Part shown: piece after piece, positions 2,580-5,433 of the stretch
How positions within the stretch are numbered: position 1 is the stretch's first letter
Layout of the letters: each line of letters opens with the position of its first letter
IMG/VR virus record: IMGVR_UViG_3300025009_000050
Location: 62,001-126,000 of that record
Strand: one strand, 5' to 3'
Origin: a virus
DNA: 64,000 nucleotides
Notes under the pieces: generated by a model
Told to the model about the DNA's origin: nothing
The model's database searches: none
What the model saw: the letters and a program-made list of their open reading frames with translations, nothing else
Position numbers and translations under genes: made by a program

Positions 2580-2778
2580 AAGATCTGTCAAACATATTAA
2601 TTCAAATGTTTACATGATCACTATAGATAAAATTTATGAAACTGAATTACATATAGATACTGAAGAAGAATATTATACTATTACATCTGATTCTGAACAT
2701 AAGATTAGAATCTCACTTGATAGTAATCTTAAAATAGATAGTTTATTTAATGCTTTCTTTATATTAATGCACCTGTAG
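2563..2778 (+). CDS. Small 'DKIY' family protein, stop codon inside a tRNA-like gene
   Basis: ATG 2563 follows GGGAGGAACAAG; 71 residues. It carries the signature TIDKIYET and then a polar beta-rich body, as in other small phage proteins of the pattern ...LTVDKIYxVxxD.... Its stop TAG (2776-2778) is the TAG at positions 8-10 of the downstream tRNA-like RNA, so the last codons are also acceptor-stem sequence. Role unknown; a small SH3-like barrel is my guess. Confidence 0.65.
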   Translation: MLIVCKRSVKHINSNVYMITIDKIYETELHIDTEEEYYTITSDSEHKIRISLDSNLKIDSLFNAFFILMHL

Positions 2779-2934
2779 CTCAATGGAAAGAGCACAGTAA
2801 AACGGAGACTGGTTGCAGAGATAAGGTTGCAGAGGCACTGAAAAACCGCTCGGTGAAGTTGAGTAAGGAAGCGCGTAATCCTTGATCTTATGCTTAGGAA
2901 ACGAGAGCCGGTTCGATACCGGCCAGGTGCACCA
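2769..2934 (+). ncRNA. tRNA-like RNA with a ~90-nt insertion (CCA encoded)
   Basis: The 5' part is a normal tRNA start: acceptor GCACCTG, TA, D arm GCTC/GAGC. The 3' part is a normal end: T arm GCCGG/CCGGC, acceptor CAGGTGC, A, CCA. Between them are about 130 bases instead of about 30. A 4-bp CAGT/ACTG stem with a 9-base loop follows the D arm, then several small hairpins (ACCG/CGGT, CTC/GAG). It is too short for a group I intron. It may be an interrupted tRNA or a tRNA mimic with an extra domain; I cannot assign an anticodon. Confidence 0.65.
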
Positions 2935-2949
2935 GATAGGGGGTTGTAT

Positions 2950-3440: not shown

Positions 3441-3445
3441 GTAAA

Positions 3446-3651
3446 TAAGCGGTGGCGAGAATAGACACCTTAATCGGTGGTAAAGCCTGTTTTCCAAAAG
3501 GGATGCATACCTTTCTTAGGGCAATAGTAGACGCTATATAGTAATTCTAGATAGCTATTGAGTTCATAGATCCTTGTCTAGAGGTAAAAACAGCTAGACC
3601 ATCAGGGATAAGCTCCTGATGACATGTAAGGTGCAAATCCTTACCCGCTTA
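3446..3651 (+). ncRNA. ~206-nt structured RNA with tRNA-like acceptor and T arm
   Basis: TAAGCGG (3446-3452) pairs with CCGCTTA (3645-3651). A T arm GTAAG-GTGCAAAT-CTTAC precedes the 3' strand. The 5' side has GGTG/CACC around an 11-base loop rather than a standard D arm with GG. The ~150-base interior contains several hairpins, including ATCAGG/CCTGAT and GTCTAG/CTAGAC. No CCA follows. It sits between tRNA-Thr and tRNA-Lys, so it is probably co-transcribed. It is neither an obvious tRNA nor a tmRNA. Confidence 0.55.
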
Positions 3652-3654
3652 CAT

Positions 3655-3811: not shown

Positions 3812-3829
3812 GTAGTAAACCTCTTTGAC

Positions 3830-4027
3830 TTTTGAATAGCGGCGTGGTGAGAACACCTAAAGTTACTATATGCAGAGATATAAGAAGTCCTGAACCGAAG
3901 GCCAAGAGTAAGGATGTCAAGTTACCAAAACATATAAGATACGATAGGGTACAGCATCGGCGTGATAAACCGAAGGTAGCTGAACCGTATTCCGGACCAA
4001 GCAGGTTTGAATCCTGCCTATTCAAAA
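3830..4027 (+). ncRNA. ~198-nt structured RNA with tRNA-like acceptor and T arm
   Basis: TTTTGAATAG (3830-3839) pairs perfectly with CTATTCAAAA (4018-4027). A T arm GCAGG-TTTGAAT-CCTGC adjoins the 3' strand. The 5' side has a short GTG-AGAA-CAC hairpin instead of a true D arm. The interior contains two related stretches with ACCGAAGG. No CCA and no recognisable anticodon arm. By architecture it is a sibling of the RNA at 3446-3651. Function unknown. Confidence 0.55.
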
Positions 4028-4036
4028 CAGTTATAA

Positions 4037-4228
4037 GGCCGGTAGTTTAATCAAGTTAAAACAATCACCTATGGTTTTTGTTATAAGCCCTATTAGCGCA
4101 ATAAGTAACTTATAACAAAAATGCTTAGAGTATACTTTTACCGGGTATATCAAATCGAACTGCAGCGACATATATCAGTTGGGAGAGTATATACTAGAAG
4201 TGAGGTACAAATCCTCACCCGGTCGCCA
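4037..4228 (+). ncRNA. tRNA-like RNA with a ~120-nt insertion (CCA encoded)
   Basis: Acceptor GGCCGG/CCGGTC, TA, D arm GTTT/AAAC, T arm GTGAG-GTACAAAT-CTCAC, discriminator G and CCA (4226-4228) make a normal tRNA frame. The anticodon/variable region is replaced by a long insert. The insert contains the strong hairpin TTTTTGTTATAAG/CTTATAACAAAAA and two AGTATA-containing segments. Interrupted tRNA or tRNA mimic; the anticodon cannot be assigned. Confidence 0.6.
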
Positions 4229-4237
4229 GTTTAATTT

Positions 4238-4424: not shown

Positions 4425-4571
4425 ATGCTTAAATGGTTGTTAAATCTATTCAAACATGATAGTATTAAACCTAATAAAGCTCTACTTACACAGGGTAGAG
4501 TCAGAAAGCAAGGACTCAATTCTGCTCCTGTAAGTTCTAGACCAGGAGCACCACCAGCACAACGTAATTAA
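4425..4571 (+). CDS. 48-residue hypothetical protein ahead of the Y RNA array
   Basis: ATG 4425 follows GAAAGGATGGT and the frame ends at TAA 4569-4571. The product starts MLKWLLNLFKHD (short amphipathic helix) and ends in a Pro/Ala-rich basic tail (RPGAPPAQRN). The stop codon's last base is the first base of the first Y RNA, so the array probably lies in the same transcript. No family recognised. Confidence 0.55.
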   Translation: MLKWLLNLFKHDSIKPNKALLTQGRVRKQGLNSAPVSSRPGAPPAQRN

Positions 4572-4650
4572 TGAGCAGTGTAGGGCAGAGTTACTTCAAA
4601 AATAAACTTCTTATTTATATACAAAGCTCTCTGTCCAATTATTCTCTCAT
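4571..4650 (+). ncRNA. Y RNA-like RNA 1 (short form)
   Basis: The 5' strand ATGAGCAGTGTA..AGAGTTACTTC and 3' strand CTCTGTCC..TTATTCTCTCAT match the eight-copy consensus N6-TAGTGTA-N5-RRGTTACTTC ... YCTA-N5-TTATTCTCC-N5. ATGAG/CTCAT and GGCAGAG/CTCTGTC pair across the two strands. The AGTG..GTTA core resembles the Ro60-binding helix of Y RNAs. The loop is AU-rich with no tRNA-like module. Confidence 0.7.
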
Positions 4651-4659
4651 TAAAATATT

Positions 4660-4726
4660 GATAGGTAGTGTGATGTAGGGTTACTTCTGATAAAAGTGCC
4701 ACCCTACTATTAATTATTCTCCTATC
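4660..4726 (+). ncRNA. Y RNA-like RNA 2 (short form)
   Basis: GATAGG/CCTATC closes the stem, GTAGGGT/ACCCTAC forms the inner helix, and the conserved GTAGTG, TTACTTC and TTATTCTCC blocks flank it. It is 67 nt with a short loop and no tRNA-like module. Nine bases separate it from copy 1. Confidence 0.75.
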
Positions 4727-4734
4727 GCAAACTA

Positions 4735-4874
4735 TTAGGGTAGTGTAGATAAGAGTTACTTCAATAGGGCACCAGCATCCGGAGGTTCAAATCCTCCACC
4801 CGTGGCTATCACGGGTTAGCCAAGCGGTCCAAGGCACTGGTTTAGATAGTCTCTTATCGCTTAATTCTCCCTAA
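4735..4874 (+). ncRNA. YrlA-type Y RNA 3 with permuted tRNA-like module
   Basis: Ro-type stem: TTAGGG/CCCTAA outside, GATAAGAG/CTCTTATC inside. Between the strands lies a circularly permuted tRNA: anticodon-stem 3' strand CCAG, T arm GGAGG-TTCAAAT-CCTCC, a closed acceptor ACCCGTG-gctat-CACGGGT, TA, D arm GCC..GGC, then anticodon-stem 5' strand CTGG. The acceptor has no free end or CCA. This is the reported architecture of bacterial YrlA, whose tRNA-like domain lacks a CCA end. The D loop resembles Leu/Ser-type tRNAs. Confidence 0.85.
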
Positions 4875-4884
4875 CAATTTTAAG

Positions 4885-5021
4885 ATTAGGATAGTGTATA
4901 TAATGGGTTACTTCGCATCTTCAGCCGTGATCGGGAGTGCAAATCTCTCACCCACAACCATAGTGGGTTAGCCAAGTAGTCAAGGCAACGTAATGTACCC
5001 TTATAGCTTATTCTTCCTAAT
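4885..5021 (+). ncRNA. YrlA-type Y RNA 4 with permuted tRNA-like module
   Basis: ATTAGG/CCTAAT outer stem and GGGT/ACCC inner helix enclose a T arm GGGAG-TGCAAAT-CTCTC, a closed acceptor ACCCAC/GTGGGT, TA and a GCC..GGC D arm. Order and lengths match copy 3, so the two look like diverged duplicates. The anticodon-type stem is short (ACG/CGT). Confidence 0.8.
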
Positions 5022-5032
5022 CTAAGCTTATT

Positions 5033-5168
5033 ATCAGGACAGTGTAGTTAAGAGTTACTTCTACATTTAATAGAGTGGTCATGGGTTCGAGTCCCATCAG
5101 AGCAACTGATAGCTCCGTAGCTCAGCTGGTAGAGCACTATGTACTCTTAACGAACAATTCTTCCTGAT
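5033..5168 (+). ncRNA. YrlA-type Y RNA 5 with permuted tRNA-like module
   Basis: ATCAGG/CCTGAT outer stem and a perfect 9-bp GTTAAGAGT/ACTCTTAAC inner helix. The permuted tRNA part has T arm ATGGG-TTCGAGT-CCCAT, acceptor CAGAGC/GCTCCG closed by a short loop (one mismatch), and D arm TAGCTCAGCTGGTAGAGC, the Ala/Thr/Lys type rather than the Leu/Ser type of copies 3 and 4. Confidence 0.85.
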
Positions 5169-5175
5169 ACAATAT

Positions 5176-5315
5176 TATGGGTAGTGTAGCATAGAGTTTC
5201 ATCGAATTGTAATCGAGTGGTCGTAGGTTCGAGTCCTACCAGGGCCTCATCAAAAGGTTCTGTAGCTCAGTTGGTTAGAGCACTAAAAGCTACTCTATGT
5301 GATTATTCTCCCATA
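5176..5315 (+). ncRNA. YrlA-type Y RNA 6 with permuted tRNA-like module
   Basis: TATGGG/CCCATA outer stem and CATAGAGT/ACTCTATG inner helix. The T arm is GTAGG-TTCGAGT-CCTAC, the closed acceptor AGGGCCT/AGGTTCT includes G-U pairs, and the D arm is TAGCTCAGTTGGTTAGAGC. The 5' block reads GTTTCATC instead of GTTACTTC. The anticodon-like segment TTGTAATCGAGTGGTC resembles the 3' half of a tRNA-Thr. Confidence 0.85.
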
Positions 5316-5410: not shown

Positions 5411-5433
5411 TCAAATTATAAGGAGTGACACTA

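What the first reader, a model, noticed from the sequence alone, without database searches (positions are those of the whole stretch)
4735..5315. Four YrlA-type RNAs carry permuted tRNA mimics of two different tRNA types
Seen: in each, the T arm precedes a closed acceptor hairpin that leads directly into the D arm, so a tRNA is circularly permuted and its anticodon stem is replaced by the Ro-binding stem. Copies 3 and 4 have Leu/Ser-like D arms (GCCAAG..GGC); copies 5 and 6 have Ala/Thr-like D arms (GCTCAG..GAGC). Known: YrlA tRNA mimics lack a free CCA end. Inference: each pair may attract a different tRNA-binding partner (modification enzyme, nuclease, synthetase), or may derive from different captured tRNAs.
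Basis: partly seen in the sequence, partly recalled or inferred. Interest (0 to 1): 0.7.

Follow-up and report, generated by a model that had tools for sequence, protein, structure and literature searches.

The report
Phage Y RNAs carrying permuted tRNAs
A large phage carries eight small Ro-protein-binding RNAs in a row, four of which contain a tRNA with its order rearranged, and two of these four still have a complete anticodon arm, a layout that recurs in many other phages and some bacteria and is not the published tRNA-mimic layout as far as I could check.

Summary
The four RNAs are real. They are Y RNAs beside a phage Ro (TROVE) gene, and each holds T arm, closed acceptor hairpin and D arm in that order. 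They are the only such modules in 64 kb. That order is the known YrlA layout (RF02553), so the permutation is not new. There are eight Y RNAs in all; four carry no module.

Two D-arm classes exist, but the labels are wrong. GCCAAG..GGC is a Gln/Cys D arm, never Leu/Ser (0 of 267). GCTCAG..GAGC is shared by many isotypes.

The anticodon stem is not replaced. Copy 3 keeps all five pairs, opened in the anticodon loop like YrlA. Copies 5 and 6 keep a whole anticodon arm, with the Ro stem inserted between tRNA nucleotides 28 and 29. Rejoined, copy 6 aligns end to end with genuine phage tRNAs. This 28/29 split recurs in other phages and bacteria (25 of 83 modules, null 3.5) and in held-out modules (8 of 10 at Ro loci, all with U33, R37, A38).

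Anticodon and body do not agree on isotype, so these are generic tRNA mimics, not isotype-specific hooks. Phages carry mixed module classes, some with class-II-like variable arms, so different tRNA types entered the Y-RNA scaffold. Partners remain unknown.

The parts
4568..4652 (+). Y RNA copy 1, no tRNA module
   Evidence: GTGTAGGGCAGAGTTACTTC motif; fold -21.2 kcal/mol, z -4.3
4661..4725 (+). Y RNA copy 2, no tRNA module
   Evidence: Motif and fold
4737..4873 (+). Y RNA copy 3: Gln/Cys-type permuted tRNA, open anticodon stem
   Evidence: AC-stem 3' strand 4771-4775, variable loop 4776-4780, T arm 4781-4797, acceptor 4798-4804 and 4810-4816, D arm 4819-4835, AC-stem 5' strand 4837-4841
4886..5020 (+). 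Y RNA copy 4: Gln/Cys-type D arm, degenerate module
   Evidence: T arm 4933-4949 (TGCAAAT loop), acceptor 4950-4968 with closing loop ACCAT, D arm 4971-4986 lacking GG; AC stem only 3 bp
5032..5168 (+). Y RNA copy 5: permuted tRNA with anticodon arm split at 28/29
   Evidence: AC hairpin CTA-CATTTAA-TAG 5061-5073, positions 42-43 AG 5074-5075 paired with CT 5137-5138; variable loop TGGTC 5076-5080; T arm 5081-5097; acceptor 5098-5117; D arm 5120-5135; RF02553 39.0 bits
5176..5314 (+). Y RNA copy 6: permuted tRNA with anticodon arm (UGU) split at 28/29
   Evidence: AC hairpin CGA-ATTGTAA-TCG 5203-5215, AG 5216-5217 paired with CT 5283-5284; variable loop TGGTC 5218-5222; T arm 5223-5239; acceptor 5240-5262; D arm 5265-5281; RF02553 42.9 bits
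5323..5409 (+). Y RNA copy 7, no tRNA module
   Evidence: Motif and fold
5425..7041 (+). Phage Ro (TROVE plus Ro60 vWA) protein, 538 aa
   Evidence: PF05731 117 bits, PF25045 31 bits
7045..7116 (+). Y RNA copy 8, no tRNA module, downstream of Ro
   Evidence: Motif; fold z -4.55

Best explanation
This is a phage array of eight Y RNAs next to their Ro gene. All eight share the Ro-binding stem and a 5' motif of the form GUGUA..GUUACUUC. Four also carry a tRNA rearranged by circular permutation, so that the tRNA hangs on the Ro stem and has no free 3' end. Two module types coexist. Copies 3 and 4 are of Gln/Cys-type D arm; copy 3 has the anticodon stem opened in its loop, the known YrlA layout. 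Copies 5 and 6 are general-type tRNAs that keep a complete anticodon arm, with the Ro stem inserted between nucleotides 28 and 29. SHOWN by sequence: anatomy, recurrence in other phages and bacteria, covariation, canonical anticodon-loop letters, lack of isotype coherence. INFERRED: the Ro ring binds the stem; the module offers a tRNA-shaped surface (elbow in all but copy 4, plus anticodon loop in copies 5 and 6) that recruits or occupies tRNA-binding enzymes, for example PNPase, tRNA-modifying enzymes, RtcB repair or anticodon nucleases, but cannot be charged. The pairs differ by which tRNA type was placed in the scaffold and where it was cut, not by synthetase identity.
For: RF02553 matches copies 5 and 6 with E 6.1e-7 and 4.7e-8 and shows the same permuted order. 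Ro gene adjacent. In viral loci fetched by DNA pattern alone, permuted modules and Ro-like genes go together: 19 both, 17 module only, 2 Ro only, 200 neither, Fisher P 3e-16. Split arm, all five pairs: 25 of 83 modules against a null mean of 3.5, maximum 11 of 5,000; loops have U33 23/25, R37 23/25, A38 21/25. Held-out modules at Ro loci: 8 of 10 split, 8 of 8 loops with U33, R37 and A38. The open stem also covaries (28 of 69, null 4.5). Rejoined copy 6 aligns over all 77 nt at 79% with genuine phage tRNAs, and copy 5 over 93%; ARAGORN reads them as tRNAs. RtcB lies in the same genome.
Against: No binding, expression or structure data; the mechanism rests on other species' Y RNAs. Copies 5 and 6 fall below the RF02553 gathering score (39 and 43 against 69), and copies 3 and 4 are not matched at all. 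Copy 5 has A at position 33 and two acceptor mismatches; copy 4 is degenerate. A strict anticodon-arm call is made for roughly a third of modules only; many are open or unclear. The viral sample is not random (partly found by patterns).
Confidence: 0.7

Rival explanations
1. Decoy or repair bait. The split modules with an intact anticodon loop occupy or are cut by host anticodon nucleases (PrrC-, RloC-, VapC- or PARIS-type defences), and Ro with RtcB handles the products, so the array protects translation during infection.
For: Complete anticodon arm with U33, R37, A38; RtcB in the same genome. PMC7790460 links the bacterial rsr-yrl-rtcBA operon to tRNA cleavage and suggests that YrlA may competitively inhibit an anticodon nuclease.
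Against: Anticodons vary and are not focused on one target; copy 5 lacks U33; no nuclease was tested. [quoted passage not shown]
Confidence: 0.25
2. Plain RYPER-like tether. All modules simply dock PNPase or another elbow-binding protein to Ro; D-arm class and anticodon arm are unimportant leftovers.
For: The elbow is nearly universal: GG in the D loop 88 of 92, TTC in the T loop 91 of 92, though the detector favours both. Y RNA tethers Rsr to PNPase, and YrlA is a DusA and TruB substrate (review PMC8394870).
Against: Leftovers should decay, yet U33, R37, A38 and all five AC pairs are kept with covariation across unrelated phages.
Confidence: 0.25
3. Permuted tRNA genes that are processed into working tRNAs by removing the Ro stem, joining 28 to 29 with RtcB, and opening the acceptor loop.
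For: Topology equals that of permuted tRNA genes of red algae (own knowledge); RtcB is present; CCA sits at positions 74-76 in the closing loop of 7 of 67 Ro-linked modules, P 0.001, including copy 4.
Against: Anticodon and body do not agree on isotype (3 of 29 rank first; genuine tRNAs are classified correctly about 80% of the time). Acceptor mismatches in copies 4 and 5; closing loops are only 3-14 nt.
Confidence: 0.05
4. All four modules come from one ancestral module by drift, with no separate tRNA origin.
For: The Ro stems of all eight copies are clearly related, and copies 5 and 6 are 76% identical over 63 nt. Isotype scores are weak.
Against: D-arm class goes with architecture across phages (0 of 14 Gln/Cys-class modules have a closed or split arm). 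Leu/Ser-class modules elsewhere have class-II-like variable hairpins, and a Glu-class module carries anticodon CUC. Mixed classes in one genome are common.
Confidence: 0.2

Closest known systems
YrlA (Rfam RF02553), bacterial Y RNA with tRNA-like domain
   Same: Adjacent Ro gene; Ro-type basal stem; T arm, closed acceptor hairpin, UA, D arm in that order; no free CCA. Copy 3 also shares the open anticodon stem.
   Different: Below the gathering score or unmatched. Copies 3 and 4 have a Gln/Cys D arm. Copies 5 and 6 keep a full anticodon arm with the Ro stem at 28/29. Eight Y RNAs in one array.
Deinococcus Y RNA / RYPER (Ro-Y RNA-PNPase)
   Same: Ro plus Y RNA with an effector-binding module.
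   Different: PNPase partnership is not tested here; the phage modules are tRNA-shaped.
Circularly permuted tRNA genes (red algae) and two-piece tmRNA
   Same: 3' tRNA half precedes 5' half, joined through a short acceptor loop.
   Different: Ends form a Ro-binding stem instead of a splice motif; anticodon and body are not isotype-coherent.

Membership tests
YrlA, RF02553 | T arm - closed acceptor hairpin - D arm order | tested here: met
   All four copies
YrlA, RF02553 | Score at or above the curated gathering score (69 bits) | tested here: not met
   Copy 6 42.9, copy 5 39.0; copies 3 and 4 no match at E 10
YrlA, RF02553 | D arm of GUAGCUCA..GAGC type | tested here: inconclusive
   Met in copies 5 and 6, not met in copies 3 and 4
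YrlA, RF02553 | Anticodon stem formed by D-side and V-side strands and open to the Ro stem | tested here: inconclusive
   Met in copy 3; copy 4 only 3 bp; copies 5 and 6 have the 28/29 split instead
Bacterial/phage Y RNAs (broad sense) | Encoded next to a Ro (TROVE) gene | tested here: met
   Ro 5425-7041
Bacterial/phage Y RNAs (broad sense) | Closed basal stem with shared motif | tested here: met
Bacterial/phage Y RNAs (broad sense) | Physical binding to Ro | not testable with these tools
   Needs a pull-down
tRNA-Leu/tRNA-Ser derivation of copies 3 and 4 | Leu/Ser D arm and long variable arm | tested here: not met
   GCCAAG..GGC in 0 of 152 Leu and 0 of 115 Ser, but 15 of 29 Cys and 16 of 56 Gln; variable loop 4-5 nt
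Functional permuted tRNA | Anticodon agrees with body isotype | tested here: not met
   Mean rank 9.0 of 20 over 29 modules

The most novel reading that the evidence does not exclude
A second, widespread class of Y RNAs carries a complete circularly permuted tRNA cloverleaf with a normal anticodon loop, the Ro stem being inserted exactly between nucleotides 28 and 29. Ro rings thereby display whole uncharged tRNA shapes, and phages and bacteria use them as baits for anticodon-loop enzymes in a Ro-RtcB RNA-damage response.
Probability: 0.25. Interest if true: 0.85.

Novelty: new variant of a known kind. Interest (0 to 1): 0.6.

Why it matters
The published Y-RNA tRNA mimic is described as D, T and acceptor arms only. 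If many Y RNAs also carry an anticodon arm, possible partners widen from elbow-binding proteins to anticodon nucleases and repair ligases. This makes the open question of what phage Ro and its Y RNAs are for directly testable. The mixed module classes suggest that the Ro scaffold has taken up several tRNA types.

Tried and rejected
Leu/Ser and Ala/Thr assignment: rejected by D-arm tallies over 1,477 tRNAs, excluding the ones that brought the loci in. A naive-Bayes isotype classifier gave only weak, inconsistent calls for the four modules. First idea of a fully closed anticodon hairpin (cut at 26/27) explained the data less well: recurrent 28:42 mismatches disappeared once 27:43 and 28:42 were assigned to the D-side strand. 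A crude 'hairpin before the T stem' test for class-II arms did not discriminate; the class-II claim rests on individual folds with the module helices imposed. Random-dealing test of mixed classes per genome: not different from random (11 mixed of 16 observed, 10.4 expected), so there is diversity but no proof of selection for diversity. BLAST of rejoined copy 3 with its unknown loop masked found nothing.

Full report
SETTING. The window is bases 62001-126000 of a 244-kb virus record of IMG/VR. A 538-aa Ro protein lies at 5425-7041 (TROVE PF05731 117 bits, vWA_Ro60 PF25045 31 bits), inside a tRNA-rich region (13 ARAGORN tRNAs). Around it are eight related units. Seven carry the motif GTGTA..AG.GTTNCTTC within one mismatch; the whole genome has no other copy and the reversed control has none. 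Copy 4 is an eighth with a different spacing. Each closes with a stem ending in ATTCTYC.

OBSERVATION. A detector written for T arm, closed acceptor hairpin and D arm in that order finds exactly four modules on both strands of the window, in copies 3, 4, 5 and 6. Copies 1, 2, 7 and 8 have none. Rfam's YrlA model matches copies 5 and 6 (39.0 and 42.9 bits, gathering 69) and its consensus has the same permuted order. The permutation is therefore the known YrlA plan.

ISOTYPE. From 1,842 ARAGORN tRNAs in fetched loci, 1,477 were usable after removing those that had brought in their locus. GCCAAG..GGC D arms occur in 15 of 29 Cys, 16 of 56 Gln, 0 of 152 Leu and 0 of 115 Ser. GCTCAG..GAGC occurs in Val 45/68, Phe 41/52, Asn 32/65 and many more. 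Copies 3 and 4 have variable loops of 5 and 4 nt, not class II. So copies 3 and 4 are Gln/Cys-type and copies 5 and 6 are general-type.

ANTICODON REGION. Copy 3 keeps the 5-bp stem CTGGT/ACCAG between the strand after the D arm and the strand before the variable loop, as in YrlA. In copies 5 and 6 the strand before the variable loop folds with the strand directly upstream (CTA-CATTTAA-TAG; CGA-ATTGTAA-TCG), while the last two pairs (27:43, 28:42) are made with CT after the D arm. The Ro stem thus sits between nucleotides 28 and 29 of an otherwise complete cloverleaf. Over 83 modules from viral and bacterial loci (mostly Ro-linked), all five pairs occur in 25 (null 3.5, SD 1.7, maximum 11 in 5,000 re-dealings), with U33 in 23, R37 in 23 and A38 in 21. 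The rule was then frozen and applied to modules from a new scan: 8 of 10 at Ro loci fit, and all 8 loops have U33, R37 and A38. Rejoined at 28/29, copy 6 aligns over 77 of 77 nt with genuine phage tRNA genes annotated Met or Asn (E 4e-10 at full length), and copy 5 over 93-96% with tRNAs including Lys and Met. ARAGORN reads them as tRNA-Thr(UGU) and tRNA-Lys(UUU).

GENERALITY. Among viral loci fetched only by DNA patterns, a permuted module and a Ro-like gene go together (Fisher P 3e-16). Among GenBank phage Ro neighbourhoods, chosen by protein only, 7 of 16 have detectable modules and 5 of those 7 have mixed classes: Arthrobacter Atuin, Streptomyces LuckySocke, Brevundimonas Kabachok, Caulobacter CcrColossus, Xanthomonas Olaya. 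Bacterial TROVE loci are nearly uniform: 23 of 25 modules TAGCTCA-type. Leu/Ser-type modules of Kabachok, CcrColossus and L249 fold with a class-II-like variable hairpin, and a bacterial one, L371, shows the same by reading the sequence. Gln/Cys-type modules never show the closed or split arm (0 of 14; Fisher against general-type for the closed arm P 0.0016; split arm).

NO ISOTYPE COHERENCE. Where the closed/split arm has U33, the amino acid read from the anticodon ranks on average 9.0 of 20 by the tRNA body, with 5 of 29 in the top three (P 0.44). Genuine tRNAs are classified correctly about 80% of the time on a similar feature set. The modules are mimics of tRNA in general, not of one isotype, and not working tRNAs.

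ORIGIN. CCA at positions 74-76 of the closing loop occurs in 7 of 67 Ro-linked modules (expected 1.6, P 0.001), including copy 4 (ACCAT). This fits origin from a tandem tRNA duplication, where the end of one copy joins the start of the next. It is suggestive only. The random-dealing test neither supports nor rejects selection for diversity within a genome.

FUNCTION. Shown: anatomy, conservation, genome context, RtcB in the same genome. From the literature: Y RNA tethers Rsr to PNPase and YrlA is modified by DusA and TruB (PMC8394870); the Salmonella rsr-yrl-rtcBA operon answers tRNA damage and YrlA may inhibit an anticodon nuclease (PMC7790460); jumbo-phage TROVE proteins are placed with RNA repair (PMC7824862). 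Inferred: Ro displays uncharged tRNA shapes that recruit or occupy tRNA-binding enzymes. Copies 5 and 6 could in addition engage anticodon-loop enzymes; copy 3 could not.

LIMITS. The viral sample is partly pattern-selected. The detector favours a canonical T loop and GG in the D loop. The core Y-RNA papers could not be read.

Noticed in passing
L051:2873-4285, L016:1804-3222, L108:2037-3536, L012:4641-6095, L095:4679-5527, L085:4085-4786, L340:10337-11860, L347:1199-2935: DUF2828/DUF7788 proteins (Pfam, function unknown) sit near permuted-tRNA modules in phages in the place of Ro, and their profile aligns with TROVE-vWA along its length (hhalign probability 98.5%). They look like a second Ro-like, Y-RNA-associated family.
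   Followed up: partly
L414:2372-2426, L416:2168-2225, L371:3107-3162, L249:770-823: Permuted modules with Leu/Ser D arms and a class-II-like variable hairpin, in Brevundimonas phage Kabachok, CcrColossus, a bacterial TROVE locus and an IMG/VR contig.
   Followed up: partly
L411:2277-2350: Annotated as tRNA-Ser(gct) in Streptomyces phage LuckySocke, but it appears to be the 5' part of a Y RNA with a permuted tRNA whose D arm lies downstream.
   Followed up: partly
window 2771-2935, 3443-3653, 3826-4026, 4037-4229: tRNA-like genes whose halves are separated by roughly 100-150 nt in the anticodon region; Rfam finds no intron family there and the inserts show little similarity to one another.
   Followed up: partly
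G000:C1:5667-6773 (outside the window): RtcB RNA ligase in the same phage genome, about 60 kb from the Ro locus.
   Followed up: no
L064:2772-3115, L007:1844-1900, L092:513-1167, L249, L104: Permuted modules in viral genomes where no TROVE gene was found (no DUF2828 either where sought), so other partner proteins may exist or the genes are missing from the record.
   Followed up: partly
L408, L410, L418, L419: Ro genes of Halogranum virus HGTV-1, a 635-kb uncultured phage, crAss001 and Bacillus phage G have no detectable permuted module within 2.5 kb.
   Followed up: no
window 4950-4968 (copy 4): The closing loop ACCAT reads as discriminator plus CCA plus one base, a possible scar of a tandem tRNA duplication.
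   Followed up: partly
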